A DNA stretch of 48,022 nt from Polyangiaceae bacterium (GCA_026989935.1 JALSIN010000379.1:1-48022), one strand, 5' to 3'; positions 1,738-47,691 are shown, numbered from the stretch's first letter. Made by a program: numbers and translations. Notes: generated by a model not told the origin, from the letters alone.

Positions 1738-1743
1738 TATCGT
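1738..1743 (+). promoter_or_regulatory. Putative -10 element TATCGT for the SDR gene
   Basis: TATCGT ends 7 nt before the GTG at 1751 and TTGCGC lies 16 nt further upstream (1716-1721) as a possible -35. No Shine-Dalgarno is present. This supports the GTG at 1751 as a leaderless start and argues against the GTG at 1742, which overlaps the element. Confidence 0.45.
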
Positions 1744-1750
1744 GCCGGAC

Positions 1751-2575
1751 GTGGCCGACCTCGCAGGCAAGACGATCTTCATCACCGGCGCGAGCCGGGG
1801 CATTGGCGAAGCGATCGCCGTTCGCTGCGCGCAAGACGGCGCGAACGTCGTGCTCGTCGCCAAGACGAAGGAACCGCACCCGAAGCTGCCGGGCACGATC
1901 TACACCGCCGCCGAGAAGGTGGAGGCCGCCGGCGGCAGGGCGCTGCCGGTGGTGGCGGACGTGCGGTTCGAGGATCAGGTGGCCGCCGCCGTGGACCGCG
2001 CCGTGGAGACCTTCGGGGGGATCGACGTCCTGGTCAACAACGCCAGCGCGATCAGCCTGACGGGCACGCTCGCCACGTCCATGAAGAAGTTCGACCTGAT
2101 GCACCAGGTCAACGTGCGCGCCACGTTCCTGTGCTCGAAGCTGTGCATCCCGCACCTGCTCGTGCGCGACAACCCGCACATCCTGAACCTCTCCCCGCCG
2201 CTTTCGATGAAGCCCAAGTGGTTTGCGGGCCACGTGGCCTACACCATGTCGAAGTACGGGATGAGCATGTGCGTGCTCGGCATGGCCGCCGAGTTCGCCG
2301 ACAAGGGGCTCGCCGTCAACGCGCTGTGGCCCAAGACGGCCATCGCCACGGCGGCGGTCCGCAACCTGCTCGGGGGCGAGGCCACGATCCGGCGCTGCCG
2401 TACGCCCGAGATCATGGCCGACGCGGCCCACGCGATCCTCACCCGCCCTGCGCGCGACACCACGGGCAACTTCTTCGTGGACGAGCAGGTGCTGCGCGAG
2501 GCCGGCGTGACCGACTTCCAGAAGTACGCGGTGGACCCCTCGCAGGATCTCCTGCCGGACTTCTTCCTGGACTGA
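1751..2575 (+). CDS. SDR family oxidoreductase, HSDL2-like
   Basis: Short-chain dehydrogenase with the NAD(P)-binding motif TGASRGIG near the N-terminus, the NNAS motif in mid-protein and the catalytic YxxxK as YTMSKYG. It carries hallmarks of the hydroxysteroid dehydrogenase-like 2 group: AKTKEPHPKLPGTIYTAAE, NLSPPLS and VNALWPKTAI. Family members act on lipid or steroid-like substrates; the substrate here is unknown. The ORF track extends to 1481, but the Rossmann fold begins right after the GTGs at 1742 and 1751. I chose 1751 because of the promoter-like element in front. The protein is about 274 aa and lacks the C-terminal SCP2 domain of animal HSDL2. The metallophosphoesterase gene follows after 15 bp, so the two are probably co-transcribed. 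Confidence 0.88.
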   Translation: MADLAGKTIFITGASRGIGEAIAVRCAQDGANVVLVAKTKEPHPKLPGTIYTAAEKVEAAGGRALPVVADVRFEDQVAAAVDRAVETFGGIDVLVNNASAISLTGTLATSMKKFDLMHQVNVRATFLCSKLCIPHLLVRDNPHILNLSPPLSMKPKWFAGHVAYTMSKYGMSMCVLGMAAEFADKGLAVNALWPKTAIATAAVRNLLGGEATIRRCRTPEIMADAAHAILTRPARDTTGNFFVDEQVLREAGVTDFQKYAVDPSQDLLPDFFLD

Positions 2576-2590
2576 GGGCGTCGGACCCGG

Positions 2591-3769
2591 ATGCACGCCC
2601 GCCTCGTGCTGTTCGGGGTCGTCGTCGGCGGCCTTTGGCTGCTCGCGGCCTACGGTGTGGCGCGGGTGAGCTTTCGAGGCTTTCGGGCCCCGATGCGCCG
2701 CCGGTTGCGGGCCGTCGTGCTCGTCGCGGCCGCCCTGCCGATCGTGACCATGGTGGTCGGGCGCGGCGGCGCCGCCGGGCGCGGGTGGCTGCCGCTCGTG
2801 GGCTTTTCCATCCTGGGCTGGCTGTCGATCTTCTTCGCGGGCGCCGCGGCGGTGCACGGTGCGGCCGCGCTCGTGCGGTGGGCGCGGCGCCGGGACCGGA
2901 CCGGCGGGCGCCCCCGGCCGGCGGATCCCTCCCGGCGCGCGTTCTTGCAGCGCGGGGTGGACGCGGCGCTGATGGGCGGAGCGGGGGCGCTGTCCGTGGC
3001 CGGGTACGCCGAGGCGGTCCGGCTGCCGCGCACGGTCACCGTCGAGGTGCCCATCGCGGGGCTCGCCCCGGGCCTCGACGGCTACACCATCGTGCAGCTT
3101 TCGGACGTCCACGTCGGGCCCACGATCGGGCGCGCCTATCTCCAAGGGCTCGTCGATCGGGCCCGTGCCCTCGCCCCGGATCTGGTGGCGGTCACCGGCG
3201 ACCTGGTGGACGGCTTCGTGCCCGACCTTGCGGCCGAGGTCGAGCCGCTGCGGGAGTTGCACGCGCCCGACGGGGTCTTCTTCGTCACGGGCAACCACGA
3301 GTACTACTGGGACGCGCCGGCCTGGTGCGACCACCTGCGCACGCTCGGGATCGTCGTGCTGCAAAACGAGCACCGCGTCGTGGCGCACGACCGCGGGGGG
3401 CTGGTGATCGCCGGCGTCTTCGACCACCGCGGCGACCGGTTCGTCCCGGGCCACGCGCCGGACCCGGCCGGGGCGCTGTCGGGGGCGCCCGAGGGCGTCC
3501 CGGCCGTCGTGCTCGCCCACCAGCCGAGGACGGCCCGTGCGTGTGTCCGGGCGGGGGCCGGGCTCGTGCTGTGCGGCCACACGCACGGGGGGCAGTACTT
3601 TCCCATGAACCTGCTCGTCGGACTCGTGCAGCCCTTCGTGGCAGGGCTTGCCCGGGTGGACGCCGCGTGGGTCTACGTCAGCCGCGGGTCGGGGTACTGG
3701 GGGCCGCCGAACCGCCTGGGGGCCCCCGCGGAGATCACCCGCATCGTGCTGCGGGCGGCGCCCGCGTAG
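2591..3769 (+). CDS. Membrane-anchored metallophosphoesterase
   Basis: A 392-aa protein with an N-terminal membrane part (helices near residues 4-25, 40-58 and 67-97), a basic linker, a further hydrophobic segment after SRRAFLQRG, and a C-terminal calcineurin-like phosphoesterase domain. The metal-binding motifs are complete and in order: LSDVHVG, TGDLVDG, TGNHEYY, AHQP and CGHTHGGQ. The family (YaeI/YkuE-like) hydrolyses phosphoesters, in some members of lipids such as UDP-2,3-diacylglucosamine; the substrate cannot be read from the sequence. The SRRAFLQ segment resembles a twin-arginine motif but is internal, so Tat export is uncertain. Start is ATG 15 bp after the SDR stop. Confidence 0.88.
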   Translation: MHARLVLFGVVVGGLWLLAAYGVARVSFRGFRAPMRRRLRAVVLVAAALPIVTMVVGRGGAAGRGWLPLVGFSILGWLSIFFAGAAAVHGAAALVRWARRRDRTGGRPRPADPSRRAFLQRGVDAALMGGAGALSVAGYAEAVRLPRTVTVEVPIAGLAPGLDGYTIVQLSDVHVGPTIGRAYLQGLVDRARALAPDLVAVTGDLVDGFVPDLAAEVEPLRELHAPDGVFFVTGNHEYYWDAPAWCDHLRTLGIVVLQNEHRVVAHDRGGLVIAGVFDHRGDRFVPGHAPDPAGALSGAPEGVPAVVLAHQPRTARACVRAGAGLVLCGHTHGGQYFPMNLLVGLVQPFVAGLARVDAAWVYVSRGSGYWGPPNRLGAPAEITRIVLRAAPA

Positions 3770-3785
3770 CGGCGGGGATCGGGGA

Positions 3786-4376: not shown

Positions 4377-4382
4377 TAGCGT
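4377..4382 (+). promoter_or_regulatory. Putative -10 element TAGCGT (glycosylase gene)
   Basis: TAGCGT, preceded by GG, ends 9 nt before the ATG at 4392. There is no Shine-Dalgarno sequence, which fits a leaderless or very short-leader transcript. Confidence 0.45.
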
Positions 4383-4391: not shown

Positions 4392-5144
4392 ATGCCGCGC
4401 CCCCGCACGGACGAACTCGTGGCCGTCGCACGAACCCTGCGCGACGAGACGAAGGTTCGGTCGTTCGGTCCAAACGTAGCGTATGTCTACGCGCCGCTGG
4501 TCTATGCCTGGGACGTCCACGAGGCGTACCTGCGGCGGTACGGGGGCCGCCAAGGGGTCGCGTTGCTCGTGGGGATGAACCCCGGGCCCTTCGGCATGGC
4601 GCAAACGGGCGTGCCGTTCGGGGAGGTGGCGGCGGTCCGGCACTACCTGGGGCTTTCGGGCACGATCGGACGGCCGGCCCGCGAGCATCCCAAGCGCCCC
4701 GTCCTCGGGTTCGAGTGCCCGCGGTCCGAGGTCAGCGGCCGGCGCCTTTGGGGGCTCGCCGCCGCCTGCTTCCCGGACCCGGACGACCTGTTCGATCGGT
4801 ACTTCGTCGCCAACTACTGCCCGCTGCTGTTCCTCGACGAGGGCGGCCGCAACCTCACGCCCGACAAGTTGCCGAAGGCCGCCGCCGAGCCCTGCTTCGA
4901 GGCGTGCGACGAGGCGATCCGGCGGACCGTGGATCTGCTGGCGCCGCGCGCGGTGGTGGGCGTCGGGGCGTTCGCCACGCGGCGCCTGCGCCGGATCCTG
5001 GCGGACCGGCCCGTACCGATCCACACGGTGCTGCACCCGAGCCCGGCCAGCCCCCGGGCGAACCGCGGCTGGGCGGCGGCCGCCCGCGCCGAGCTGGCGC
5101 GCTGCGGGCTGTGCGGGCGGGCCGGCGAGACCGCCGCTTGCTAG
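4392..5144 (+). CDS. SMUG1-type uracil-DNA glycosylase (UDG family 3)
   Basis: A 250-aa member of the uracil-DNA glycosylase superfamily with the two SMUG1 signature motifs: GMNPGPFGMAQTGVPFGEV near residue 60, holding the catalytic Asn and the uracil-binding loop, and HPSPASPRANRGW near the C-terminus with the catalytic/intercalation loop. SMUG1 enzymes remove uracil and oxidised pyrimidines such as 5-hydroxymethyluracil from DNA. They are common in animals and patchy in bacteria. The protein acts in cytoplasmic base excision repair. It is divergent from the receiver gene and followed by msrA after 12 bp. Confidence 0.92.
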   Translation: MPRPRTDELVAVARTLRDETKVRSFGPNVAYVYAPLVYAWDVHEAYLRRYGGRQGVALLVGMNPGPFGMAQTGVPFGEVAAVRHYLGLSGTIGRPAREHPKRPVLGFECPRSEVSGRRLWGLAAACFPDPDDLFDRYFVANYCPLLFLDEGGRNLTPDKLPKAAAEPCFEACDEAIRRTVDLLAPRAVVGVGAFATRRLRRILADRPVPIHTVLHPSPASPRANRGWAAAARAELARCGLCGRAGETAAC

Positions 5145-5147
5145 GAT
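5142..5147 (+). promoter_or_regulatory. Putative -10 element TAGGAT overlapping the glycosylase stop codon (msrA)
   Basis: The TAG stop of the glycosylase forms the first three bases of TAGGAT, which ends 9 nt before the msrA ATG at 5157. The same bases include AGGA, so a weak ribosome-binding role is an alternative. Confidence 0.35.
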
Positions 5148-5156: not shown

Positions 5157-5807
5157 ATGGCGCCCCTCGCCCCCTCGCATCTCGTCCCCCCCGACCAGGC
5201 GCTGCCCGGCCGGGACACCCCCATGCCCGTCCCGGCGCGCCACCACGTGCTCGGCACACCCATGGAGGGGCCCTGGCCCGACGGCCACGCGGTGGCGGTC
5301 TTCGGGATGGGCTGCTTCTGGGGGGCCGAGCGGCTCTTTTGGTCCATGGAGGGCGTTTTCTGCACGGCGGTCGGCTACGCCGGCGGCTACACGAAGAACC
5401 CGACCTACCGCGAGGTGTGCACCGGGCGGACCGGGCACGCGGAGGTCGTGCGCGTCGTCTTCGATCCGGCCCGGATCGCCTACGAAGCGCTCCTGGCCGC
5501 GTTCTGGGAGAACCACGACCCGACCCAGGGGATGCGTCAGGGCAACGACGTGGGCACCCAGTACCGCTCGATCGTCCTTGCGACCGACGACGACCAGCGC
5601 GCCCGGGCGCTCGCCTCGAAGGAGGCCTACGCCGAGCGCCTCGCCGCGGCCGGATACGGCCCCGTCACGACGACCGTCGAGCCGCTTTCCGTCTTCTACT
5701 TCGCCGAGCCCGAGCACCAGCAGTACCTCGCCAAGCATCCCGGCGGCTACTGCGGCCTGGGCGGAACGGGCGTTTCGTGCCCGGTGGGGCTCGGCGTGGG
5801 CGGCTGA
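5157..5807 (+). CDS. msrA: Peptide-methionine (S)-S-oxide reductase MsrA
   Basis: About 216 aa with the MsrA catalytic motif [10 protein letters not shown] (nucleophilic Cys), [12 protein letters not shown], the conserved [12 protein letters not shown] stretch, [16 protein letters not shown], and C-terminal cysteines in [13 protein letters not shown] that can serve as resolving residues. It reduces methionine-S-sulfoxide in proteins using thioredoxin, a repair function in the cytoplasm. The N-terminus has about 45 extra residues before the core with no obvious signal peptide. The ORF track begins at the TTG at 5151, but the ATG at 5157 is preferred for codon type and spacing. It is followed after 14 bp by pdxB. 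Confidence 0.93.
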
Positions 5808-5821: not shown

Positions 5822-6997
5822 ATGCGCCCGCGGATCCTGGTGGACGGCCGCCTGCCCGGTGCCCGGCGCCTGTTTGCGCCGCTGGGGGACGTCGAGCCCT
5901 TCGAGGGGCCCGCGCCGCCGCGGACGGCCCTTCGGCGGGCCGAGGCGCTGGTGGTCCGCAGCGTCACCCGCGTGGACCGGGCCCTGATCGACGCCGCGCC
6001 GCGGCTTTCGTTCGTGGGGACCGCCACGTCGGGAACGGATCACGTGGACCGGGCGGCCCTGGCCGAGCGCGCGATCGCGTTCGCCGCGGCGCTCGGCTCG
6101 AACGCCGCGGCCGTGGCGGAGTACGTGCTGGCGGCCGTGGTGGGCGTGCTCGCCGTGCCGCCGCCGGGCCCCGTGGGGATCGTGGGCTTCGGACACGTCG
6201 GACGTCGGGTCCACGCGGCGTTTTCGGTCCTCGGGTACCAAACGCTCGTGTGTGACCCGCCTCTGGCGGAGCTGCGGGCGCGCCGGGCCGCCCTCGGTGG
6301 CGGCGCCCACGCCGAGAGCCTCGCCCGCGCGGTCCCCCTGCTCCCCTTGCCCGACCTGCTGGCGCGCGCCCGGGTGGTCACCGTGCACGTGCCCCGCACG
6401 AGAGCCGGCCGACACCGCACGGTGGGCCTGCTGGACCGGGTGGCCCTCGGACGGATGCAACCCGGGGCGGCCCTCGTGCAGACGAGCCGCGCCGGAGTGG
6501 TGGACCTCGCCGCGGCGGTGGACCGGGGGCTTCGTCTCGTGGTGGACGTGTGGCCCGGGGAGCCGCGGGTCCCGCGCCGCCTTCTCGCGGCCTGCCGTCC
6601 GGCGCTCGCGGCTGCCACGCCGCACGTGGCGGGTGCGACGGCCGCGGCCAAACGCCGGGCGATCCGCTCGATCCAGCGTGCGCTGGCGCGGCACCTTCGC
6701 CGGAGCCTTCCCCCCGATTCGCCGCCCCGACGGGCCGCTGCGACGCTCGACGCGCGCGGGCGCACCCTGGGCGAGTGCCTCGATGCGCTCGTCGGCCTGC
6801 GCGCCTCCTGCCGGGCCCTCGCGCGGGCGGCGGCGACCTCGCCCGGGGCCCGGGTGGACCTCGAGCCCCTGCGCCGGCGCCTGCGGCCGGAGCTTGCGGA
6901 GGTGACGATCCGCGGCGCCGCCCCGGGCGTCGGGGCCGCCCTCGACGCCGTGCTGCGGGCGCTCGCCCCGTTCGACGACGCGGCCGGCTTCGCGTAG
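5822..6997 (+). CDS. pdxB: 4-phosphoerythronate dehydrogenase PdxB
   Basis: A D-isomer-specific 2-hydroxyacid dehydrogenase of about 391 aa. The N-terminal ILVDGRLPGAR and VRSVTRVD, then FVGTATSGTDHVD, are specific PdxB motifs. The NAD-binding motif is GIVGFGHVGRRV and the catalytic Arg/Glu/His are in QTSRAGV, VWPGEP and TPHVAG. A C-terminal dimerisation-type domain follows, as in proteobacterial PdxB. It oxidises 4-phosphoerythronate in the DXP-independent-of-PLP-salvage branch of pyridoxal phosphate synthesis. The ORF track merges it with a long upstream shadow; the real start is the ATG at 5822, directly before the fold. Confidence 0.9.
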   Translation: MRPRILVDGRLPGARRLFAPLGDVEPFEGPAPPRTALRRAEALVVRSVTRVDRALIDAAPRLSFVGTATSGTDHVDRAALAERAIAFAAALGSNAAAVAEYVLAAVVGVLAVPPPGPVGIVGFGHVGRRVHAAFSVLGYQTLVCDPPLAELRARRAALGGGAHAESLARAVPLLPLPDLLARARVVTVHVPRTRAGRHRTVGLLDRVALGRMQPGAALVQTSRAGVVDLAAAVDRGLRLVVDVWPGEPRVPRRLLAACRPALAAATPHVAGATAAAKRRAIRSIQRALARHLRRSLPPDSPPRRAAATLDARGRTLGECLDALVGLRASCRALARAAATSPGARVDLEPLRRRLRPELAEVTIRGAAPGVGAALDAVLRALAPFDDAAGFA

Positions 6998-7000
6998 CGT
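6995..7000 (+). promoter_or_regulatory. Putative -10 element TAGCGT overlapping the pdxB stop codon (acyltransferase gene)
   Basis: The pdxB TAG stop forms the start of TAGCGT, which ends 8 nt before the ATG at 7009. No Shine-Dalgarno is visible. Confidence 0.42.
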
Positions 7001-8613: not shown

Positions 8614-8938
8614 GCCACGGGGTGGATTCACGCGCCGTGCCGACCCCGGCGGACCCGTCCCGCGGCCGTGGACCGATCCGCCCCCGTGTGCCGCGCCCCG
8701 TCCCGCCGGTGAACGGCCCGTCGCCGGGCCGGGCCGGGCGTCGGCCCGGTGGTGCGGGATCGGGCGACGGCGCCGCGGGTCCCTCCGCCGCCGGCGGGGG
8801 TGCGCTGCGGCCGCCGCCGGTCCCGTGGGCGGCTCGTGCGTCCCGGCGGGGTGTGGGTCGGCCCGGGGCCCGGCCGCGGGCCCGGCCGGCGTCCCGCCGG
8901 GGCACGGGCGGATGCGCGCGTGCTACAGTGCCCGCGGG
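8614..8938. other. Intergenic region of 325 bp with no supported gene
   Basis: Very GC-rich sequence between two divergent genes. All ORFs crossing it are Arg/Pro/Gly-rich and lack start-site or domain support. It must hold the promoters of the vWA and PilZ genes, of which only the TACAGT element at 8924 is recognisable. Confidence 0.7.
8924..8929 (+). promoter_or_regulatory. Putative -10 element TACAGT (PilZ gene)
   Basis: TACAGT preceded by GC ends 9 nt before the ATG at 8939. It matches TATAAT at four of six positions and no Shine-Dalgarno is present. Confidence 0.45.
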
Positions 8939-16160: not shown

Positions 16161-16166
16161 ACTCTA
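16161..16166 (-). promoter_or_regulatory. Putative -10 element TAGAGT (Cys-rich lipoprotein gene)
   Basis: On the minus strand TAGAGT, preceded by GC, ends 6 nt before the ATG at 16154. No Shine-Dalgarno fits in the 6-nt spacer, so a leaderless transcript is the natural reading. Confidence 0.48.
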
Positions 16167-16263: not shown

Positions 16264-16269
16264 TATCGT
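16264..16269 (+). promoter_or_regulatory. Putative -10 element TATCGT (unknown protein gene)
   Basis: TATCGT preceded by GG ends 6 nt before the ATG at 16276. The spacer CCCGCC has no ribosome-binding site. Confidence 0.5.
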
Positions 16270-17623: not shown

Positions 17624-18952
17624 ATGAGCGCCCCCGTCGTTCGCCCCCGGCAACGCCTCGGCAAGTACCGCATCGTCCGCCGGATCGGTCGGGGCGGCTA
17701 CGCCGACGTGTACGAGGCGACGGACACCATCGAGGGGCTGCGCGTGGCGCTGAAGATCCCCTCGGCCGAGGCGCTCTCACCCGCGGTGCTCGAGGAGGTC
17801 CGGCGGGAGATCCGGCTGGCGGCCGTTCTCGACCACCCGAACGTCCTGCCGCTCAAGAACGCCGACGTCCTCGAAGGGCGCCTGGTCATCGCCTACCCCC
17901 TCGGGGTCGAGACGCTGGAACATCGGCTGGCCCGCCGGCTCGGGGTGCGGCGCGCCCTGGAGCTGGCCGATCAGATCCTGGCGGGGCTCGCCTGCGCCCA
18001 CGAGCACGGCATCATCCACTGTGACATAAAACCCGACAACATCCTGCTGTTCGACGACGGCACCGCCAAGATCGCGGACTTCGGTATCGCGAAGGTGGGC
18101 ACGCGCACGCTGCAGGCGTCGGGCACGGGCACCGTGGGGTACATGGCACCCGAACAGGCGATGGGCCGTCCGTCGCCGCGCTCCGACGTGTTCGCGGCCG
18201 GCATGGTGCTCTATCGTATGTTCACGGGGGTGTTGCCGCAGTGGCCGCTCGCCTGGCCGCTGCCGGGGCATCGGCGCCTGCGGAAGATCGGGGCCGAGGT
18301 GACGGAGGTGCTGCGCCGGGCGCTCGAAGTGGACCCGCGCCGCAGGTACCGGGACGCGGGGGCGATGTTGCGGGCCTTTCGGGCGGCGCGCCGCAAGGTG
18401 ACGGCCCGCACGAAGCCAACAATGCGCGCCGCCGGCGGCAACGGCGTGGCGGTCGGCCGGGACTGGCGACGCGTGCGGGCGCGACAGTACCGGCGCCTCG
18501 TGTCGGACTGGTTGCGTCACGACGACGACTGCCCCGCCTGCGGCGAGCCGTTCGACGAGCGCATGACCCATTGCCCGTTCTGTGGCCAGGCGCGTCCGTT
18601 CTACGACGGCCCGACGACCATGCCCCGCCGGTGTGAGCGCTGCGGGCGGGGCGTCAAGCTCGACTGGAAGTACTGCGCGCACTGCTACGGCGCGGCGGTC
18701 GGGCCCGCGAGCGGTCGGACGTACACGGATCGCCGCTACGCCGCTCGATGCACCTCGGCTCGGTGCACGCGCAAGGTGCTCATCCCCTTCAGCCGGTATT
18801 GCCCGTGGTGCCGGACGAAGGTGCGACGGCGGTGGAAGATCCCCGGTGTCGGCGGACAGTGCCGGCGATGCGGGTCGAGCGTGGTCGCCGGCTTTTGGTC
18901 CCACTGCGCCTTTTGCGGCTCGGCCTTGCCGACGAAACGCAACACCAGGTAA
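17624..18952 (+). CDS. Ser/Thr protein kinase with C-terminal zinc-ribbon array
   Basis: About 442 aa. Residues 14-270 are a protein kinase domain: glycine loop IGRGGYADVYEA, catalytic Lys K44 in VALKIP, catalytic loop IIHCDIKPDN, ADFGIAK, and YMAPEQA. The loop reads HCD instead of HRD, so it is a non-RD kinase. After a basic linker the C-terminal 130 residues hold four Cys-rich ribbons: CPACGEPF with CPFCGQ, CERCGRG with CAHC, CTSARC with CPWC, and CRRCGSS with CAFCGS. There is no transmembrane segment, so it is a cytoplasmic kinase whose ribbons may bind nucleic acid or protein. The next gene encodes a PP2C phosphatase 8 bp downstream, a likely antagonist. Start is the ATG at 17624; the ORF track's 17126 start is a shadow. 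Confidence 0.9.
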   Translation: MSAPVVRPRQRLGKYRIVRRIGRGGYADVYEATDTIEGLRVALKIPSAEALSPAVLEEVRREIRLAAVLDHPNVLPLKNADVLEGRLVIAYPLGVETLEHRLARRLGVRRALELADQILAGLACAHEHGIIHCDIKPDNILLFDDGTAKIADFGIAKVGTRTLQASGTGTVGYMAPEQAMGRPSPRSDVFAAGMVLYRMFTGVLPQWPLAWPLPGHRRLRKIGAEVTEVLRRALEVDPRRRYRDAGAMLRAFRAARRKVTARTKPTMRAAGGNGVAVGRDWRRVRARQYRRLVSDWLRHDDDCPACGEPFDERMTHCPFCGQARPFYDGPTTMPRRCERCGRGVKLDWKYCAHCYGAAVGPASGRTYTDRRYAARCTSARCTRKVLIPFSRYCPWCRTKVRRRWKIPGVGGQCRRCGSSVVAGFWSHCAFCGSALPTKRNTR

Positions 18953-18955
18953 CGT
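18950..18955 (+). promoter_or_regulatory. Putative -10 element TAACGT overlapping the kinase stop codon (PP2C gene)
   Basis: The TAA stop of the kinase forms the start of TAACGT, which ends 5 nt before the GTG at 18961. It could give the phosphatase its own leaderless transcript. Confidence 0.35.
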
Positions 18956-22771: not shown

Positions 22772-23734
22772 ATGTCGAACCGATCTCGTTCTCTTCTCCT
22801 TCGTGCATCCGTGCCCCTCGTCGCAGCTTCGATCCTGTGCGGTTGCGCCGGCCGCAAGGCGGCCTGGGAGGGCGCCCCGCAGCCGTCGGCGTCTCCCGAG
22901 GCCGGCGGCTCGGCGGCGGTGCGAAAGTGCTACGATCCGGCGGGTACCCTCGACGAGGCCACGGCCAAGCAGGTGGCCGATCTCGTCGCCCAGGGCGACG
23001 CAGCCTGGGCCGAGCGCACCAGCCCGGACGCGATCCGCAAGGCCATTGCGGCCTGGGAGGAGGCGGCCAAGATCGAGACCGGCAACGTGGACCTGCTGGT
23101 CAAGCTCACACGGGCCCACTACTTCCTGGCCGACGGCTACCTGCGGGCGGACGCCAAGGCCTACCTCGCCACCATGGACAAGGGGGTCTCCTGGGGCGAG
23201 TGCGCGATCGCGGCCGCGAGTCCGGCCTTCGCCAAGAAGCTCGAAGGCGGCGCCAAGCTGCACGAGGCGGTCACGGTGGTGCCCAAGGAGGGCGTGCCGG
23301 CGATGTACTGGTACGCCTCGGCGCTGGGCAAGTGGGCCAAGAAGAAGGGGTTTGCCGTCTTGCTCGGCCAGAAGGACAACGTCAAGGCCACGATGGACCG
23401 GTGCCTGGCCCTCGACCCGGAGTACTACTATGCGGGCCCGTACCGCTACTTCGGCGCCTACTACGCCGTGGCGCCGAGCTTCGCCGGCGGCGACCTCAAC
23501 AAGTCGCGCGAGTTCTTCGAGAAGTCGCTCGCCCTCGAGCCGCGCTACCTCGGGACGAAGGTGCTGTGGGCCCAGGAGCTCGCGGTCAAGCTGCAGGACG
23601 AGGACGAGTTCGACCGCCTGCTCGGCGAGGTGCTCGCGGCCCCCGACGACATCATTCCCGAGCTCGTCCCCGAGACCCTCGTCGAGAAGCAAAAGGCCAA
23701 GGAGCTCATGGCGCAAAAGGACGAGCTCTTCTAG
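22772..23734 (+). CDS. TRAP transporter TatT-component lipoprotein
   Basis: About 320 aa. A lipoprotein signal ends in SILCGC, then an all-helical domain of TPR-like pairs typical of TatT (TP0956 of Treponema pallidum): the hydrophobic helix around residue 110-125 ([10 protein letters not shown]), [31 protein letters not shown] with [21 protein letters not shown], and the closing [10 protein letters not shown]-type helix. TatT forms a trimer that docks onto the substrate-binding protein of TRAP systems in the periplasm. The three downstream TRAP genes confirm the role. ATG at 22772 has AAGGA about 13 nt upstream. The divergent DUF5690 gene begins about 160 bp away. Confidence 0.9.
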
Positions 23735-23844
23735 CGCACTTGGCGCGGGCCATGGGGGGCGATTGAATGCTCCAGCGCCCGCCCGCGTCCAACCGTGCCG
23801 GACGGCCACGCCGTCTTTTCCCTTGGACCCAGGAGACCGACCCC

Positions 23845-24855
23845 ATGAACACGCGCTCGAAGCTCTCCCGCCGCTCCTTCGTCGCCGGCTCGGCCGGTGT
23901 GTTCCTCGTGCCCCGCTTCGCCAAGGCCGAGGCGGAATTCACCATGAAGGTGGCGAGCGTGGCGCCGGCTGGCACGCCGTGGGCCAAGCACCTGCGGGCG
24001 CTCAAGAAGCGGATCCAGAACGACAGCGGCGGCCGGATCAAGGTCAAGGCGTACCTGGGCGGCGCCCTGGGCGACGAGATCGCCACCGCCGAGGCGACCA
24101 AGCGTGGGGCGATCCAGGTCTTCGGGGGGACGGCGGCGGCGCTCGCCTCGGCGGTGCCGGAGCTTGCGGTGGTGGAGCTGCCGTTTCTGTTCGACCGGGT
24201 CGCCCAGGCCGACCACGTGCTCGACCACGTGATCCGGCAGGACCTGGAGAAGCTGCTTTGGGATCGCGGCTACAAGCTGGCCTTCTACTCGGAGAACGGC
24301 TGGCGCTCCATCGGCACGAACTTCGGACCGGTCCACGGCCCGAAGGATCTCGCCGGCAAGAAGATGCGCTCGATGGAGTCGGACGTGCACCTTGCCACCT
24401 GGCGGGCGCTGGGCGCCTCCCCCGTCCCGATCCCCGTCACGGAGGTGCTCTCGGCGCTGCAGACCGGCGTGGTGGACGGCTTCGACAACACGCCGCTGTT
24501 CACCTTCGCCGCCTCCTGGTACCAGGGGATCAACAACTTTACGCTCACCCGGCACAGCTACCAGCCGGGGCTGGTGGTGATCTCGCGCAAGTGGTGGGAG
24601 AAGCTGCCCGCCGACCTGCAGCAGGTCGTGCTCGGCGACCCGGCGGCCGAGTCCAAGAAGGGGCGCCGCGGCGTGCGGGCGATCCGCAAGATGCTGGTGC
24701 AGAACTTCACGAACGCCGGGATCGCCGTCTACGAGCCCACGGCCGCCGAGCGTGCGGCGATGCGCCAGGCCACGCGCAAGGTGCACGACGAGTTCGCGCG
24801 CAAGACGGGCTCGGCCGGCAAGCGGCTGCTCGACAAGATCCGCAAGGCTCTTTGA
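23845..24855 (+). CDS. dctP: TRAP transporter substrate-binding protein (DctP family)
   Basis: About 336 aa. A twin-arginine signal, [17 protein letters not shown], is followed by a DctP fold with [48 protein letters not shown] and the ligand-binding region [25 protein letters not shown] is the conserved C-terminal lobe motif. It binds the solute in the periplasm, together with the TatT lipoprotein, and passes it to DctQM. Export folded via Tat is inferred from the RR motif. The ORF track start (23767) is too early; the ATG at 23845 has AGGAGA 9 nt upstream. Confidence 0.92.
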
Positions 24856-24968
24856 CGGGGCGCCGTTCGTCGGGGCAGGGGCGTCCGCGGCGGCGCCCAA
24901 GCCCTGCGGCCGATCCGCGGCGCGCCCCGGGTCACCGTCGGGGCCGTCGCCGCCGGCCGTTTTTCCGG

Positions 24969-24974
24969 TAGGAT
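24969..24974 (+). promoter_or_regulatory. TAGGAT element before dctQ
   Basis: TAGGAT preceded by GG ends 7 nt before the GTG at 24982. If it is a -10, the dctQ start would be the GTG at 24982 rather than the ATG at 24973 that overlaps it. Confidence 0.35.
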
Positions 24975-25794
24975 GCGCTCCGTGACAGCGTTTCTTACGC
25001 GCCTCGACCGAGCCGTGTACCGCGCGGAGCGGAGCCTCGTCGTGGCGGGCCTCGTGGTGATGAGCGCGGTCGTCTTCCTGGACGTCCTGCACCGCACCGC
25101 GGCGGACCCCGACGGCCTGCTCGTGCGGCTCGTGCACCGCGCCTGGGGCGGCGGCGACGCGATCGCCGACTCGACCCGGACCGTCGCCCTCCTCCTGGGC
25201 TTTGCCTTCTGGTGGCTCGTGTTCGCGTTCGCCCTGCGCAGCCGCAAGGCCGACCGTCCGATCCCGGCAGGCCGGGCCCTTGCGGTGGCGGCGGGGATCA
25301 CCCTGGCGGCCTACGCGGGGGTGCGCGCGATCGTGGCGCTCTTTCCCAACGGCTTCATCTGGTCGCAGCCGTTCGCCCTGGTCCTGCTGTTGTGGGTGGG
25401 CTTCCTGGGGGCGTCCATGTGCACCTACGAGGACAAGCATCTTCGCGTCGAGGCCGCGGAGCGGGCGTTGCCGGAGGCCGCCCGCCGGCCCGTCGCCGTG
25501 GTGCGGTACCTGGGGACCGCCGCCTTCTGCGCCTTCCTGGTGGTCGCGTCGTGGAAGTACATGGTCTTCCACTTCGAGGAGTGGGTCGCCACGGAGCACC
25601 GCGGTGGCATGTTCCTGGGCACCGAGGTGCCGCGGTGGGTGGGCTTCTTGGTGCTGCCGATCGCCTTCTTCGTGATGGCGGCGCGGTTTGCCGGGCGCGC
25701 GGTGCAGGCGGCCCGCGGCACCCTCCGCACCCGCGACGCCGTGGCCGACCTGGTGGCCGGCCGCAAGGCTTCGGCGGGGGGAGGGGGCGCGTGA
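24973..25794 (+). CDS. dctQ: TRAP transporter small membrane subunit (DctQ family)
   Basis: 273 aa, clearly longer than the usual 150-180 aa. Six hydrophobic segments are visible (about residues 23-43, 70-92, 103-125, 132-150, 184-205 and 223-243), against four in canonical DctQ. The order (SLVVAGLVVMSAVVFLDVLHR first, a GFLGASM segment in the middle, YLGTAAFC near the end) fits DctQ with a two-helix insertion. It joins with DctM to form the inner-membrane translocator. Start is ATG 24973 or, nine bases later, GTG 24982. The stop overlaps the dctM GTG as GTGA. Confidence 0.82.
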   Translation: MRSVTAFLTRLDRAVYRAERSLVVAGLVVMSAVVFLDVLHRTAADPDGLLVRLVHRAWGGGDAIADSTRTVALLLGFAFWWLVFAFALRSRKADRPIPAGRALAVAAGITLAAYAGVRAIVALFPNGFIWSQPFALVLLLWVGFLGASMCTYEDKHLRVEAAERALPEAARRPVAVVRYLGTAAFCAFLVVASWKYMVFHFEEWVATEHRGGMFLGTEVPRWVGFLVLPIAFFVMAARFAGRAVQAARGTLRTRDAVADLVAGRKASAGGGGA

Positions 25795-31533: not shown

Positions 31534-31539
31534 TATCTT
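31534..31539 (+). promoter_or_regulatory. Putative -10 element TATCTT (YtkA-like lipoprotein gene)
   Basis: TATCTT preceded by GC ends 6 nt before a GTG at 31546 and 9 nt before the ATG at 31549. Confidence 0.42.
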
Positions 31540-36931: not shown

Positions 36932-36937
36932 TAGGCT
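36932..36937 (+). promoter_or_regulatory. Putative -10 element TAGGCT (MBL hydrolase gene)
   Basis: TAGGCT ends 10 nt before the ATG at 36948. The spacer GCAGGGTGCG has only a weak purine run. Confidence 0.35.
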
Positions 36938-37613: not shown

Positions 37614-38298
37614 GGGCGAAGGCGACGCCGATCCCCGCCACGAAGGTCGACAGCCACCGCGCCTCGCGCTCGCCCTGGAAGGTGCGGCGTTCGTAGGGGC
37701 CGAGGACGTAGCCGCCCCAGGGCTCGATGCGAAGCCGCGGCGAGACGGGGAAGCGCACCCCGGCGGCGAGGGCGAACGAGACGCGCCCCCATCGGGCCGT
37801 GCCCGCGGGGACGTCGGCGAGCGGGGCGTCGAACCGCTCCGGGCCGAAGGCGTGCACGAAGGCGGTCTCGAAGCGCCCGAACAGCCGGTGCCCGTACAGC
37901 CCGATGCCGATCGCCGGCGCCACGACCCCGCTGTACAGGCGCTTGTCGCGGACCACGTTGCCCGCCGCGTGGAGGCGGCCGTGCAGCCGCAGCGGCCCCA
38001 CGAGCCCAAGACGCAGCTCGGCGCTCGCGCCCAGACCGAAGAACCGCCCCGCCCGGGCGCAGGTGCGGCGGTCCAGGTCGCACTGCTCGTTGCCGAAGGC
38101 GTGGGGGCCCGTCACGACCGAGCCCTGGACCTCGAGCAGGGCCCGGTGTGAAGGGCGTGGGACCGGGCGCCGGGCGTCTGCGGCGGGCGCGGCGCCCCCG
38201 GCGAGCAGCGCGGCGATGGCCGCGGCGCTGCGGCGCAGCGGGCGGTCGTCGCCGCAACGGACGGGGGAACGGGTCGGGCTCTGGTACCTTGGGGCCAT
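37570..38298 (-). CDS. Probable outer-membrane beta-barrel protein, uncertain start
   Basis: About 242 aa from the ATG at 38298. A basic stretch and RRSAAAIAALLAGGAAPAADA look like a cleavable signal sequence. The rest alternates polar and hydrophobic residues with regularly spaced aromatic and Gly residues (GRVSFALAAGVRFPVS, RIEPWGGYVLGPYE), the pattern of an outer-membrane barrel. Two Cys lie in QCDLDRRTC. It is not recognised further. The start is unsettled: the ATG overlaps the divergent eda ATG on the other strand and there is no ribosome-binding site. Confidence 0.6.
   Translation of the reverse strand: MAPRYQSPTRSPVRCGDDRPLRRSAAAIAALLAGGAAPAADARRPVPRPSHRALLEVQGSVVTGPHAFGNEQCDLDRRTCARAGRFFGLGASAELRLGLVGPLRLHGRLHAAGNVVRDKRLYSGVVAPAIGIGLYGHRLFGRFETAFVHAFGPERFDAPLADVPAGTARWGRVSFALAAGVRFPVSPRLRIEPWGGYVLGPYERRTFQGEREARWLSTFVAGIGVAFALIDDPRPRRARARP
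38285..38290 (+). promoter_or_regulatory. Putative -10 element TACCTT (eda)
   Basis: TACCTT preceded by GG ends 6 nt before the ATG at 38297; the spacer GGGGCC is identical to the one at 31540. Confidence 0.47.
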
Positions 38299-39266: not shown

Positions 39267-41582
39267 ATGAACGACGACAGCTCCCCCTCCCACACGCAGG
39301 GGCACGAGAACGCCGAGAGCCTCGACCGGTTCTCCTACGACGACGGGATCGTCCGCCTGTTCTTCTGGGCGACCCTCGTGTGGGCGATCGTGGCCTTTAC
39401 GGTCGGCGTCTTCATCGCGCTCCTGCTGGTCCTCCCCGACCTTTCCGGCGGCCTGCCGTACCTCGCCTTCGGCCGGTTGCGCCCCCTGCACACGAACGCG
39501 GCGATCTTCGCGTTCGCGGGCAACGCGCTGTTTGCGGCCACCTACTACTCCACGCAGCGCCTGGTCAAGGCGCGGATGTGGAGCGACGCGCTGTCGCGGC
39601 TGCACTTTTGGGGTTGGCAGCTCATCATCGTGGCGGCGGCGTTGACGCTGCCGCTGGGGATCACGCAGGGCAAGGAGTACGCCGAGCTCGAGTGGCCCAT
39701 CGACATCGCCATCGCGGTGGTGTGGGTCGGGTTCTTCGGGGTCAACTTCTTCATGACCTTGAAGCACCGGCGCGAGCGTCACCTGTACGTGGCGATCTGG
39801 TTCTACATCGCCACGATCATCACGGTGGCGGTGCTGCACGTGTTCAACAACCTCGTGCTGCCCGTCGATGCGCTCAAGAGCATCCCGATCTACGCGGGCG
39901 TGCAGGACGCCTTCATGCAGTGGTGGTACGGCCACAACGCCGTGGCCTTCTTCCTGACCACGCCCTTCCTGGGCCTGATGTACTACTTCTTGCCCAAGGC
40001 GGCCGAGCGGCCGGTCTTTTCCTACAAGCTGAGCATCCTGCACTTCTGGTCGCTGGTGTTCATCTACATCTGGGCGGGCCCGCACCACCTGCACTACACG
40101 GCGCTGCCCCAGTGGGCGTCGGCCCTCGGGATGGTGTTCTCCGTGATGCTGTGGATGCCGAGTTGGGGCGGGATGATCAACGGCCTGCTCACCTTGCGGG
40201 GGGCGTGGCACAAGGTCGCCGAAGATCCCGTGCTCAAGTTCTTCGTGACCGGCGTGACCTTCTACGGCATGTCCACCTTCGAAGGTCCGATGTTGTCGGT
40301 CCGGGCGGTCAACGCGCTGTCCCACTACACGGACTGGACGATCGCCCACGTACACTCGGGGGCGCTGGGGTGGAACGGGATGATGAGCTTCGGGATGCTC
40401 TACTTCCTGGCGCCGCGGCTGTTCCAGACCAAGCTGTGGAGCAAGAAGCTCGCCACGTGGCACTTTTGGATCGCCACGGTGGGCCTCGTGCTCTACATCG
40501 TGCCCATCTACGTGGCGGGGCTCACGCAGGGCCTGATGTGGCGGGCGTTCGACGACATGGGCAACCTCGCCTATCCGAACTTTGTCGAGACCGTCGAGGC
40601 CATCAAGCCGATGTGGTGGGTGCGCGTCCTCGGGGGCACGCTCTACCTGACGGGCGGGGTCCTGGCCCTGGTGAACCTGGTCAAGACGTGGCAGGGCCGA
40701 CCGAAGACCTATGAGGTGCCCGTCGTGTCCGCGCCCCCGCTTGCGAGGGAGTACCGCGATCCGCCCCCGCCGGCCCCGCGGGCCGAGGCCGTGCCGGAGT
40801 TCGCCAAGCGGTTCGACGTGTGGCTCCAACTCGCCTGGCACCGGATCTGGGAGCGCAAGCCCCTGCGCTTCTCCCTGTGGGTGACCGCGGCCGTCGTGAC
40901 CGCCTCGCTGTTCGAGATCATCCCCACGTTCCTCATCCGCTCGAACGTGCCCACGATCGCCAGCGTGCGGCCCTACACCCCGCTGGAGTTGGCCGGCCGG
41001 GACATCTACGTGGCCGAGGGTTGCTACAACTGCCACTCGCAGATGATCCGCCCCATCTTCTCCGAGACGGAGCGGTATGGCGAGTACTCCAAGCCCGGTG
41101 AGTTCGTCTACGATCGTCCCTTCCAGTGGGGGTCACGCCGGATCGGGCCGGATCTCGCCCGCGAGGGGGGCAAGCAGTCGAACCTGTGGCAGTACGTCCA
41201 CCTGGTCAACCCGCGCGACATCGACGAGAACTCGGTGATGCCCTCGTACGCCTTCTTGACGCGCGAGCGGCTCGACTTCCGCCAGATTCCGCCGCGCGTG
41301 GCGGCGGCCGCGGCCCTCGGGGCGCCCTACGGCGAGGCCCTCGACCATGCCGAGGCGATGGCCCGCGCCCAGGCCAAGACCATCGCCGACAGCATCGTGG
41401 CGCAGGGCGGACCGGCCAGCGTGGCCCTCGACAACGGCGAGACGATCCCCCTCGAAGAGACGAAGGCGATCGCGCTCATCGCCTACCTGCAGCGACTCGG
41501 GACGGATCTGTACGCGCAGCCGGCCGAGGCGAGTGCGCAGCGATCGGCCGGACCGACGGCCGGAAAGAAGGCCGCACCATGA
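39267..41582 (+). CDS. ccoNO: cbb3-type cytochrome c oxidase subunits I and II fused (CcoN-CcoO)
   Basis: 771 aa. Residues to about 480 are CcoN: about 12 helices with heme and CuB ligands in LHTNAAIFAF, WYGHNAVAFF, AGPHHLHYT and IAHVHSGALGWNG. A Pro-rich linker (about 490-515) joins this to CcoO: one transmembrane helix and a heme c site GCYNCHSQMIRP, followed by FQWGSRRIGPDLAREGGK and MPSYAFL. Oxygen is reduced to water at the CcoN site, with electrons from CcoO and CcoP. The two are separate genes in proteobacterial models; fusion is known in other phyla. The chain ends at a stop overlapping ccoQ (ATGA). Confidence 0.95.
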   Translation: MNDDSSPSHTQGHENAESLDRFSYDDGIVRLFFWATLVWAIVAFTVGVFIALLLVLPDLSGGLPYLAFGRLRPLHTNAAIFAFAGNALFAATYYSTQRLVKARMWSDALSRLHFWGWQLIIVAAALTLPLGITQGKEYAELEWPIDIAIAVVWVGFFGVNFFMTLKHRRERHLYVAIWFYIATIITVAVLHVFNNLVLPVDALKSIPIYAGVQDAFMQWWYGHNAVAFFLTTPFLGLMYYFLPKAAERPVFSYKLSILHFWSLVFIYIWAGPHHLHYTALPQWASALGMVFSVMLWMPSWGGMINGLLTLRGAWHKVAEDPVLKFFVTGVTFYGMSTFEGPMLSVRAVNALSHYTDWTIAHVHSGALGWNGMMSFGMLYFLAPRLFQTKLWSKKLATWHFWIATVGLVLYIVPIYVAGLTQGLMWRAFDDMGNLAYPNFVETVEAIKPMWWVRVLGGTLYLTGGVLALVNLVKTWQGRPKTYEVPVVSAPPLAREYRDPPPPAPRAEAVPEFAKRFDVWLQLAWHRIWERKPLRFSLWVTAAVVTASLFEIIPTFLIRSNVPTIASVRPYTPLELAGRDIYVAEGCYNCHSQMIRPIFSETERYGEYSKPGEFVYDRPFQWGSRRIGPDLAREGGKQSNLWQYVHLVNPRDIDENSVMPSYAFLTRERLDFRQIPPRVAAAAALGAPYGEALDHAEAMARAQAKTIADSIVAQGGPASVALDNGETIPLEETKAIALIAYLQRLGTDLYAQPAEASAQRSAGPTAGKKAAP

Positions 41583-45036: not shown

Positions 45037-47430
45037 GTGCCCGCGACGCCCGCGACCCCCTCCGCCGCCTGCCGCCACTGCGGCGCGCCGCTTCGGGGCG
45101 CGGGCGCGTTCGAGACGCGCGGCTTCTGCTGCGCCGGGTGCGAGATCGCGGCCGGGCTCGTGACGCCGGACGGCCTTTGCCCCTACGTGGCGGGGCTCGA
45201 CGAGGACGGGCCGGACGACGGCGTCGCCTACGGGGCTCTCGACGACCCGGCCGTCGAGGCACGGTCCACCGAAGCCCTCGCCGGGGGGCACCGGCGCGTG
45301 CGCGTTCGGCTGTCGGACCTGCGCTGCGCGTCGTGCGTGTGGCTGCTCGAACGCCTGCCGTCGCTCGTCGAGGGCGTGCTCGATGCCCGCGTGCGCCTGC
45401 ACCCGGCGTCCATCGAGGTGACGTACCGCCGGCCGGCCACCCTGGGCGCGATCGCCCGCATGCTCGCCCGCCTCGGGTACGATCCGCGCCTGGGCGACGG
45501 GGCCGACGAGACCGACCACGCCGCCCGCCGGGCCGACCTGGCGCGGATCGGAGTCGCCGGCGCCTGCGCCGGCAACGCCATGCTCCTGGCCGTGGCCCTG
45601 TACCTGGGCGACGCCTACGGCATGGGGGCCCAGGCCCGCTCCCTGCTGCGGTCCCTGTCCGCCGTCGTCGGGCTCGTGGCGATCGCCGGGCCCGGGCGCG
45701 TGTTCCTGCGCGGGGCGGTGTCGGCGCTCGCGACCCGCACGCCCCACATGGACCTGCCCGTCGCCCTCGGCCTCGTCGTGGGCGCCGCGGCCGGAACGAT
45801 CAACGTCCTGCGTGGGGCCGGCGCGATCTACTTCGACACGCTGTCCGTCCTCGTGTTCCTGCTGCTGGTCGGTCGAAGCCTCCAATCGTGGCAGCAGCGG
45901 CGGGCCCTGTCGGCGGTGGCGGTGCTGCGCCAGCTCGTGCCCGCCGCGGCCCGCCGTTTCGAGGACGGGAACTGGCGCACCGTGCCGTCGTCGGCCCTGC
46001 GTCCGGGGGACCGTGTGCGCGTGGACGCCGAGGCCGTGTTCCCCGCCGACGGGGTGGTGGCGGCTGGCGAGGGGGCCGTGGACGCCGCGCTCCTGACCGG
46101 CGAGACCCGGCCGGTCCCGGTCGCGCCGGGGTCGCCGGTGCACGCGGGCACGGTCAACGCCGCGGGCCCCCTGGAGGTGCTCGTCGAGCGCGTCGGGGAG
46201 GCGACCCGGCTCGGCCGCATCGGGGCGCTCGTGGAGCAGGCGGCCACCACGCGCGCGCGCCTGGTGCGGGCCGCCGACCGGATCGGGGCCGGGTTCGTGG
46301 TGGCCGTCACGGCCCTGGCGGCGGTGACCTTCGCGGTCTGGTGGCCCGAAAGCCCGTCGCTCGCCGTCGAGCACGCGGTGGCCCTGCTCGTGGTGGCCTG
46401 CCCGTGCGCCCTCGGCCTCGCGACGCCGCTTGCGGTGGCCGCCGCGGCGGCGGCCGGGGCGCGTGCGAGGATCTTCGTGCGCGACGCGGACGCCCTCGAG
46501 GCCCTGCGGGGTGCACGGACGGTGTTGTTCGACAAGACGGGCACCCTGACCGAAGCCCGCCCGTCGGTGGCGCGCTACCTGGGCGATCCGGGCGCCCGAG
46601 GGCGGGCGGTCGCCCTGGAGCAGGGGATCGCTCATCCCGTGGCCCGCGCCGTCGCGGCCTCGTCGGCGCCGCCGTCCGTGCGCGTGGCGCGGGTGGAGAC
46701 CGGGCGCGGCCTGCAGGGCGTCGCGGGCGTCGTGGACGGGCGGCCCGTGGCGGTGGGCAGCGCCGCCTATCTCGCGTCGCGGGGCGTGCCGATCGAAGGG
46801 CCCCTCGCGGACGCATGGGCCGCCCACCGGGCCGCGGGGCGACCGGCGGTGGGCGTGGCCGAAGGTGGCCGTCTCGCCGGCGTCTTCCTGCTCGACCACG
46901 CGGTGCGGCCGGGGGCACGGGCCCTCGTGGACGCGCTGCGCGGGCGCGGGGTGGACGTGGCGATCGTCTCCGGGGACGTGCCGGAGGTGGTGCGGTCGGT
47001 GGGACGCGCCCTCGGGCTGGGCCCGCGGGCCTGTCACGGAGACGTCTCGCCGGAGGGCAAGCTCGCGCTCGTCCGGACCCGCCGCCGCCCGGTGGTCGTC
47101 GTCGGCGACGGGGTCAACGATGCGATCGCCCTGCGGGCCGCCGACGTGGGGATCGCCGTGGGCGGCGGGGCCGAGGCGGCGCTTCGGGCCGCTGCCGTGT
47201 TCTGCGACCGACCCGGCATCGAGCCGGTCCGCGCCGTCTTCGCCCTGGCCGACCGCACGTGGGCCGTCGTGCGACGCAACGTCCTGGTGTCCCTGGCCTA
47301 CAACGCCGTGGCCGTGGGGCTCGCCATGGCCGGCGCCATCGGACCGCTCTCGGCTGCGGTGCTGATGCCGGCCAGCTCGATGACGGTCGTGGCGCTGACG
47401 CTCGCCGGCCTCGGAAGGTGGCGCCCGTGA
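45037..47430 (+). CDS. ccoI: Copper-exporting P-type ATPase CcoI (FixI)
   Basis: About 797 aa. N-terminal Cys pairs (CRHCGAP, FCCAGCE) and an HMA-like domain with RCASCVWLLE precede the membrane part, which has the CPC motif in VACPCALGLATPLA. The ATPase motifs are LLTGETRPVPV, VLFDKTGTLTEA, AHPVARAV and VVGDGVNDAIA. It delivers copper across the inner membrane for the CuB site of cbb3 oxidase. Its GTG start follows the SafE-like gene; its stop overlaps ccoS. Confidence 0.95.
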   Translation: MPATPATPSAACRHCGAPLRGAGAFETRGFCCAGCEIAAGLVTPDGLCPYVAGLDEDGPDDGVAYGALDDPAVEARSTEALAGGHRRVRVRLSDLRCASCVWLLERLPSLVEGVLDARVRLHPASIEVTYRRPATLGAIARMLARLGYDPRLGDGADETDHAARRADLARIGVAGACAGNAMLLAVALYLGDAYGMGAQARSLLRSLSAVVGLVAIAGPGRVFLRGAVSALATRTPHMDLPVALGLVVGAAAGTINVLRGAGAIYFDTLSVLVFLLLVGRSLQSWQQRRALSAVAVLRQLVPAAARRFEDGNWRTVPSSALRPGDRVRVDAEAVFPADGVVAAGEGAVDAALLTGETRPVPVAPGSPVHAGTVNAAGPLEVLVERVGEATRLGRIGALVEQAATTRARLVRAADRIGAGFVVAVTALAAVTFAVWWPESPSLAVEHAVALLVVACPCALGLATPLAVAAAAAAGARARIFVRDADALEALRGARTVLFDKTGTLTEARPSVARYLGDPGARGRAVALEQGIAHPVARAVAASSAPPSVRVARVETGRGLQGVAGVVDGRPVAVGSAAYLASRGVPIEGPLADAWAAHRAAGRPAVGVAEGGRLAGVFLLDHAVRPGARALVDALRGRGVDVAIVSGDVPEVVRSVGRALGLGPRACHGDVSPEGKLALVRTRRRPVVVVGDGVNDAIALRAADVGIAVGGGAEAALRAAAVFCDRPGIEPVRAVFALADRTWAVVRRNVLVSLAYNAVAVGLAMAGAIGPLSAAVLMPASSMTVVALTLAGLGRWRP

Positions 47431-47681
47431 GCGTGCTGCTCATCGCCGTCCCGGCGGCGCTCCTGCTCGTGGCGGGCTTCGCCTGGGCCTTCGTCCGCAG
47501 CGCCCGCGCCGGCGCGTTCGACGATCTGGAGACCCCCGCCCTGCGCATCCTCGCCGACGACGAGCCCCGCCCGCCACCCTCCCCGTCCGCCGGGAATCCC
47601 GAAGCGCCGCCCCCGTCGTCGCGGTCGTGCCGCCGAGGAGCCCACGCCGCGCCCTCGACCGGCCCCCCTCCAAAGAGGTAA
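47427..47681 (+). CDS. ccoS: cbb3 oxidase assembly protein CcoS
   Basis: 84 aa, a small gene missed as a distinct ORF in the track. One transmembrane helix (VLLIAVPAALLLVAGFAWAF) followed by SARAGAFDDLETPALRILADD, the CcoS signature. A longer Pro/Ser-rich tail than usual follows. Required for heme/copper insertion in the oxidase. GTG start overlaps the ccoI stop (GTGA). Confidence 0.9.
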   Translation: MSVLLIAVPAALLLVAGFAWAFVRSARAGAFDDLETPALRILADDEPRPPPSPSAGNPEAPPPSSRSCRRGAHAAPSTGPPPKR

Positions 47682-47684
47682 CGT
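47679..47684 (+). promoter_or_regulatory. Putative -10 element TAACGT overlapping the ccoS stop codon
   Basis: The ccoS TAA stop is the start of TAACGT, which ends 7 nt before the ATG at 47692 of the next gene. Confidence 0.4.
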
Positions 47685-47691
47685 GATCGTC

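What the first reader, a model, noticed from the sequence alone, without database searches (positions are those of the whole stretch)
1738..47691. Recurrent S-TANNNT box 5-10 nt before start codons: likely leaderless promoters
Seen directly: TANNNT, usually after GG or GC, ends 5-10 nt before the start codon of genes at 1751 (TATCGT), 4392 (TAGCGT), 5157 (TAGGAT), 7009 (TAGCGT), 8939 (TACAGT), 16154 minus (TAGAGT), 16276 (TATCGT), 18961 (TAACGT), 24982 (TAGGAT), 31546/31549 (TATCTT), 36948 (TAGGCT), 38297 (TACCTT) and 47692 (TAACGT). Most lack a Shine-Dalgarno. A -10 at this distance places the transcript start at or next to the start codon. Known: TANNNT at this spacing marks leaderless promoters in Deinococcus and Actinobacteria. 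In DNA this GC-rich, three fixed A/T positions in so narrow a window should be rare by chance. I infer widespread leaderless transcription in this lineage.
Basis: partly seen in the sequence, partly recalled or inferred. Interest (0 to 1): 0.75.

Follow-up and report, generated by a model that had tools for sequence, protein, structure and literature searches.

The report
Leaderless gene promoters in a myxobacterium
In this uncultured myxobacterial relative, about a quarter of the genes that head a transcription unit carry their promoter so close to the start codon that the messenger RNA probably begins at the start codon itself, a known bacterial arrangement shown here for a little-studied lineage by statistics, comparison with relatives and promoter anatomy, but not yet by experiment.

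Summary
All 13 TANNNT boxes exist, and the pattern is genome-wide. In 785 kb of the same genome, 116 boxes lie 6-11 nt before 399 transcription-unit-first starts, against 24 expected. Genes inside operons lack it and use Shine-Dalgarno sites. The box is a sigma-70 -10 element: it is preceded by TGN in 44% of cases (extended -10) and by a TTG 17-18 bp upstream (-35), both fixed to the box rather than to the start codon. Gaps under 6 nt are almost absent, as a start at or just before the start codon requires. In a same-genus genome the box is kept in 20 of 27 orthologues although the flanks are randomised. All 11 family homologues of dctQ carry one, 9 at leaderless spacing. Leaderless, or at most a few nt of leader, is the best explanation. 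Corrections: the host is Myxococcota, Nannocystaceae-like. Four boxes (5157, 7009, 18961, 47692) overlap an upstream stop codon; 18961 is probably chance, and 7009 and 47692 are unverified. TA-led genes were already predicted in delta-proteobacteria (Zheng 2011), so this is a new member of a known kind. No transcript ends have been mapped.

The parts
1738..1743 (+). TATCGT box, gap 7 to GTG 1751 (short-chain dehydrogenase)
   Evidence: conserved as TAAGGT, gap 7, in same-genus G001
4377..4382 (+). TAGCGT box with TGG extension, gap 9 to ATG 4392 (uracil-DNA glycosylase superfamily)
   Evidence: conserved TAGCGT, gap 9, in G001
5142..5147 (+). TAGGAT box with TGC extension, gap 9 to ATG 5157 (PMSR family, peptide methionine sulfoxide reductase); its TAG is also the stop codon of 4392-5144
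   Evidence: G001 has TACCCT, gap 8, with no stop codon in it, so the box is kept for its own sake
6995..7000 (+). TAGCGT box, gap 8 to ATG 7009 (acyltransferase); TAG is the stop codon of 5822-6997
   Evidence: not testable in G001 (contig break); unverified
8924..8929 (+). TACAGT box with TGC extension, gap 9 to ATG 8939 (PilZ domain protein)
   Evidence: conserved TAGGTT, gap 8, in G001; protein alignment starts at residue 1
16161..16166 (-). TAGAGT box with TGC extension, gap 6 to ATG 16154 (no Pfam match)
   Evidence: conserved TACGAT, gap 6, in G001
16264..16269 (+). TATCGT box, gap 6 to ATG 16276 (no Pfam match); divergent with 16154
   Evidence: conserved TATGGT, gap 6
18950..18955 (+). 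TAACGT, gap 5 to GTG 18961 (PP2C phosphatase); TAA is the stop codon of the kinase gene 17624-18952; probably chance
   Evidence: not conserved in G001 (TAGGAC)
24969..24974 (+). TAGGAT box, gap 7 to GTG 24982 (TRAP transporter DctQ)
   Evidence: TANNNT upstream in all 11 family homologues, 9 at leaderless spacing
31534..31539 (+). TATCTT box, gap 6 to GTG 31546 (9 to ATG 31549) (YtkA-like)
   Evidence: conserved TATGGT in G001
36932..36937 (+). TAGGCT box, gap 10 to ATG 36948 (metallo-beta-lactamase fold)
   Evidence: conserved TACCCT, gap 9
38285..38290 (+). TACCTT box with TGG extension, gap 6 to ATG 38297 (KDPG/KHG aldolase)
   Evidence: conserved TAGGTT, gap 6
47679..47684 (+). TAACGT, gap 7 to ATG 47692; TAA is also the stop codon of the FixS/CcoS ORF
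   Evidence: FixS domain in frame up to 47681; beyond the stretch compared with G001; unverified

Best explanation
The TANNNT boxes are the -10 elements of primary-sigma (sigma-70/RpoD) promoters placed so that RNA polymerase starts at, or up to about 5 nt before, the A/G of the start codon. The messages are therefore leaderless or near-leaderless and must be translated without a Shine-Dalgarno site. In this Nannocystaceae-like lineage they serve roughly a quarter of transcription-unit-first genes, are often of the extended -10 type (TGN-TANNNT) with a weak -35 (TTG) 17-18 bp upstream, and coexist with ordinary SD-led translation of operon-internal genes. Shown: position, enrichment, promoter anatomy, class specificity and conservation. 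Inferred: the transcript start and leaderless translation.
For: Peak at hexamer starts -17..-12 with a sharp fall after -12 (13 at -12, 2 at -11, 1 at -10), as expected if at least 6 nt must separate the -10 from the start base. Enrichment 116 against 24.0 expected, P about 2e-41, in 399 first/mid genes. Box-anchored TGN in 51 of 115 (6 expected), and TTG at -23/-24 in 16 against at most 2 at any other position. SD-like sites in 7/115 boxed against 59/284 unboxed genes, P 2e-4, and in 40% of operon-internal genes. ATG/GTG only at boxed called starts, no TTG among 54. Orthologue footprint 20/27 against 2/76, with upstream flanks at random identity 0.30-0.32 (0.30 expected). DctQ family conservation. 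Same signal in relatives G001, G004, G020, G034 and G087, and in the Deinococcus MP1 positive control; absent in E. coli. RpoD regions 2.4-3.0 align nearly residue for residue with RpoD of a solved structure.
Against: No 5' ends have been mapped. Gaps of 9-11 nt would leave leaders of 1-5 nt. Two of 11 dctQ homologues have the box 18-20 nt upstream of the aligned start. Seven of 27 boxed orthologue pairs lack the box in the sister genome. Additional leadered promoters further upstream cannot be excluded: 16 sense against 6 antisense TGNTANNNT occur in upstream DNA of unboxed first genes. Starts were called by a home-made coding-potential caller.
Confidence: 0.9

Rival explanations
1. The TAG/TAA of the box is simply the stop codon of the upstream gene, which tends to lie about 10 nt before the next start in tight operons.
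For: True for 4 of the 13 window sites (5157, 7009, 18961, 47692) and for 8 of 12 boxes at operon-internal genes.
Against: 0 of 116 boxes at first/mid genes coincide with an upstream stop. Most boxes begin TAC or TAT, which are not stops. At 5157 the sister genome keeps the box as TACCCT, with no stop.
Confidence: 0.04
2. The boxes are real promoters, but the true translation starts lie further downstream, so the genes have ordinary leaders and the apparent spacing is an annotation artefact.
For: Start codons are inferred, and several boxed starts are not the highest-scoring start of the caller (71 of 115 are).
Against: A random start choice would not give the sharp 6-11 nt gap with almost nothing at 5 or less. 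Protein alignments with the sister genome start at residue 1 for 8939, 16154, 16276, 24982, 36948 and 38297. The codon-position conservation pattern is present after the start codon, while DNA upstream of the box is at random identity. Boxed genes lack SD sites.
Confidence: 0.05
3. The box is not a promoter but a translational or composition feature (an AT-rich unstructured patch before the start codon).
For: AT-rich start regions are common in bacteria (general knowledge).
Against: The enrichment is specific to T-A-N-N-N-T, the best of all three-fixed patterns, and the middle bases are not AT-rich. TGN and TTG elements sit at promoter distances from the box rather than from the start codon. 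It is confined to transcription-unit-first genes, whereas a translational aid should also serve operon-internal genes.
Confidence: 0.02

Closest known systems
TA-led (leaderless) genes of bacteria, Zheng et al. 2011 (PMC3160421)
   Same: TANNNT about 12 nt (first T) upstream of the start; absent SD; coexistence with SD-led genes. The paper already reports TA-led genes in 8 of 33 delta-proteobacterial genomes at 5.7-20.6%.
   Different: The main text does not contain 'Myxococc' or 'Sorangium'; family-level conservation, the TGN extension and the -35 of this lineage are added here.
Mycobacterium tuberculosis leaderless promoters, Cortes et al. 2013 (PMC3898074)
   Same: TANNNT -10, 26% of genes with a primary TSS leaderless, experimentally mapped.
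   Different: There only 7% of TANNNT boxes have TGN and no -35 was found; here 44% have TGN and a TTG -35 is visible.
ORF-adjacent -10-motif of Deinococcus-Thermus, Zhong et al. 2025 (PMC12340547)
   Same: -10 motif a few bp before the ORF drives leaderless mRNA; about 30% of ORFs on average in the phylum.
   Different: In my Deinococcus sample TGN precedes 1 of 20 boxes, so the extended -10 looks typical of the present lineage.

Membership tests
Bacterial leaderless (TA-led) genes | TANNNT hexamer beginning about 12-17 nt upstream of the start codon, above shuffled expectation | tested here: met
   54 of 303 against shuffle mean 3.8, maximum 11; 116 against 24.0
Bacterial leaderless (TA-led) genes | No Shine-Dalgarno site in front of the start | tested here: met
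   SD-like tetramer in 7/115 boxed genes, 59/284 unboxed, 40% of internal genes
Bacterial leaderless (TA-led) genes | Transcription start within about 5 nt of the start codon | not testable with these tools
   Needs RNA from a cultured relative; the spacing cut-off at 6 nt is indirect support
Bacterial leaderless (TA-led) genes | mRNA without leader is translated | not testable with these tools
   No ribosome profiling or reporter data
Sigma-70 (group 1) promoter | -10 element with extended -10 (TGN) and/or -35 at 16-18 bp | tested here: met
   TGN 51/115; TTG at 17-18 bp spacer 16/115, elsewhere at most 2 per position
Sigma-70 (group 1) promoter | Genome encodes a group 1 sigma factor with conserved regions 2.4 and 3.0 | tested here: met
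   RpoD in G000:C180 aligns nearly residue for residue with an RpoD chain over these regions
Mycobacterial-type leaderless promoter | TANNNT with little TGN and no detectable -35 | tested here: not met
   TGN 44% and a -35 TTG peak, against 7% and none in M. tuberculosis

The most novel reading that the evidence does not exclude
In Nannocystaceae and other Polyangia, being leaderless is a gene-specific trait under long-term selection: the same genes (for example dctQ) keep an extended -10 box fused to the start codon across genera, and this promoter type (TGN-TANNNT with -35) is a lineage-specific variant distinct from the mycobacterial and deinococcal ones.
Probability: 0.35. Interest if true: 0.55.

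Novelty: new member of a known kind. Interest (0 to 1): 0.4.

Why it matters
It extends solid evidence for a mixed leaderless/Shine-Dalgarno gene-expression regime to a predatory, drug-producing Gram-negative group in which I found no open-access genome-wide 5'-end map. Practical consequences: gene starts in these genomes can be corrected with the box, promoters can be read directly from sequence, and expression constructs for Nannocystaceae genes should not assume a ribosome-binding site.

Tried and rejected
The first single-pattern count (GGY..TANNNT..ATG) was too restrictive to be useful. No 16S was found in the genome, so its anti-SD could not be read; phylum relatives have an intact CCTCC tail. 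My gene caller failed on E. coli, so annotated starts were used instead. The backwards-pattern control is not a perfect null (ratio about 0.5 in out-of-class genomes), so it is used only for comparison between groups; the out-of-class group is 55 of the genomes, typed by hand. The phmmer alignment shown for RpoD is to entry 7ye1 rather than to E. coli. Stop-codon coincidence was tested and rejected as the general explanation but accepted for 18961.

Full report
What was checked. The window is contig C379 of a 4.47 Mb draft genome in 471 contigs, 95% complete, GC 72.5%. The closest named relatives of its RpoD are a Polyangia MAG (67%) and a Nannocystaceae MAG (62%). The genomes of these two records match the same-family handles G007 and G005 by identical match coordinates, so the window belongs to a Nannocystaceae-like family of Myxococcota, order Nannocystales by name.

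Is it more than chance? I wrote a gene caller that uses codon statistics only, so start calls are blind to upstream motifs. In 666 kb of the genome, 303 genes head a transcription unit by position; 54 have TANNNT beginning at -17..-12, against 4-11 in equal windows further upstream and a dinucleotide-shuffle mean of 3.8 with maximum 11 in 300. Of all hexamer patterns with three fixed positions, TA...T is the most enriched (P about 2e-28). 9,872 internal ATG/GTG codons show no peak. Allowing alternative in-frame starts near the called one, in 785 kb, 116 boxes are seen against 24.0 expected at 399 first/mid genes, an excess of about 23% of such genes. E. coli first genes with annotated starts show depletion, 3 against 13.4, and a Deinococcus plasmid, the positive control, shows 20 against 5.1.

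Where it is not. Operon-internal genes have few boxes (3 of 134; 12 against 3.5 in the inclusive count). Eight of those 12 are stop codons of the preceding gene. These genes instead have SD-like tetramers at 40%. Boxed genes have them at 7/115, unboxed first/mid genes at 59/284 (P 2e-4). The signal therefore marks transcription-unit heads and replaces, rather than accompanies, an SD site.

What it is. Aligned on the box, not on the start codon, two further elements appear: TG at -3/-2 in 51 of 115 (about 6 expected), the extended -10; and TTG at -23 (10) or -24 (6), against at most 2 at any other position, a -35 with a 17-18 bp spacer. Variants TGN-CANNNT (8 against 1.2), TGN-TANNNC (10 against 1.2) and TGN-TANNNA (5 against 0.5) are enriched at the same spacing, so the true number is somewhat higher. 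The gap peaks at 6-9 nt and falls sharply below 6. That is what is expected if transcription starting about 7 nt or more after the -10 must not begin inside the coding sequence (general knowledge of sigma-70 promoters). Gaps of 6-8 fit a start exactly at A/GUG; 9-11 would leave 1-5 nt, which M. tuberculosis workers also call leaderless (5' UTR between -5 and +5). The primary sigma factor's regions 2.4 and 3.0 align nearly residue for residue with RpoD of a solved structure.

Conservation. Against the same-genus genome G001, 27 reciprocal-best pairs have a box in the present genome and 20 keep it at the homologous start; of 76 unboxed pairs only 2 have one in G001. DNA upstream of the box is at random identity (0.30-0.32; random 0.30) and coding-type conservation is present after the start codon, so the box alone has been kept. 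In the window, 1751, 4392, 5157, 8939, 16154(-), 16276, 24982, 31546, 36948 and 38297 are conserved. 18961 is not: gap 5, TAA is an upstream stop, TAGGAC in G001. 7009 and 47692 fall on a contig break or outside the compared stretch, and also overlap upstream stops. For dctQ at 24982, all 11 family homologues at 36-74% protein identity have a TANNNT box, nine with 7-11 nt and two with 18-20 nt to the aligned start.

How far it extends. Sampled stretches show an excess in the same genus (G001, P 2e-8) and family (G004 1e-4; G020 5e-6), and in the same class (G034 and G087 about 1e-3; G049 weak, 0.05); none in two other phylum members (G045, G086). A scan of TGS-TANNNT-(6-9)-RTG over 115 phylum genomes gave 286 matches against 102 for the reversed control in the window's genome. 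The median ratio is 1.2 in the same class (22 genomes) and 0.47 in 55 out-of-class genomes (Mann-Whitney P 2e-5). GC content was not controlled in that scan, so 'a trait of much of the class Polyangia' is tentative.

What is known. Zheng et al. 2011 defined TA-led genes computationally and already counted 8 of 33 delta-proteobacterial genomes with 5.7-20.6% such genes. GeneMarkS-2 work predicts leaderless transcription in 21.6% of bacterial species (PMC9581028). Leaderless transcripts are experimentally mapped in M. tuberculosis, and in Deinococcus-Thermus the -10-motif has been tested with reporters and transcript levels. Searches for leaderless work in myxobacteria found no dedicated open-access study; subscription papers are not covered. 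The kind is therefore known; this lineage, its high TGN share (44% against 7% in M. tuberculosis, and 1 of 20 in the Deinococcus sample) and its family-level conservation are additions.

Verdict. Ordinary in kind, unusually well supported for a purely sequence-based claim, and directly testable in cultured Nannocystis. Not shown: the 5' ends and leaderless translation.

Noticed in passing
window 39267-41582: A single ORF carries both a COX1-type (CcoN) domain and a FixO (CcoO) domain, a fused cbb3 oxidase subunit, followed downstream by a P-type ATPase and a FixS ORF.
   Followed up: no
window about 47430-47681: The FixS/CcoS gene is read in the frame of the long spurious ORF 45138-47681, not that of the P-type ATPase; my gene caller missed it.
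   Followed up: partly
window 32145 and 17624, and their G001 orthologues: TG-anchored CANNNT variants (TGTGGCACCCT / TGTGGCAACCT; TGACAGCGT in both) sit upstream of these starts and are conserved, suggesting -10 variants beyond TANNNT.
   Followed up: partly
window 22919-25794: A TRAP transporter cluster begins with a TAtT (T-component) gene followed by DctP and DctQ; DctQ has its own start-adjacent promoter box while 23845 has a conserved AGGAG ribosome site.
   Followed up: no
G000:C369:46913-48478: The genome holds a second RpoD-like sigma factor, 58% identical to the primary one, also present in the same-genus genome.
   Followed up: no
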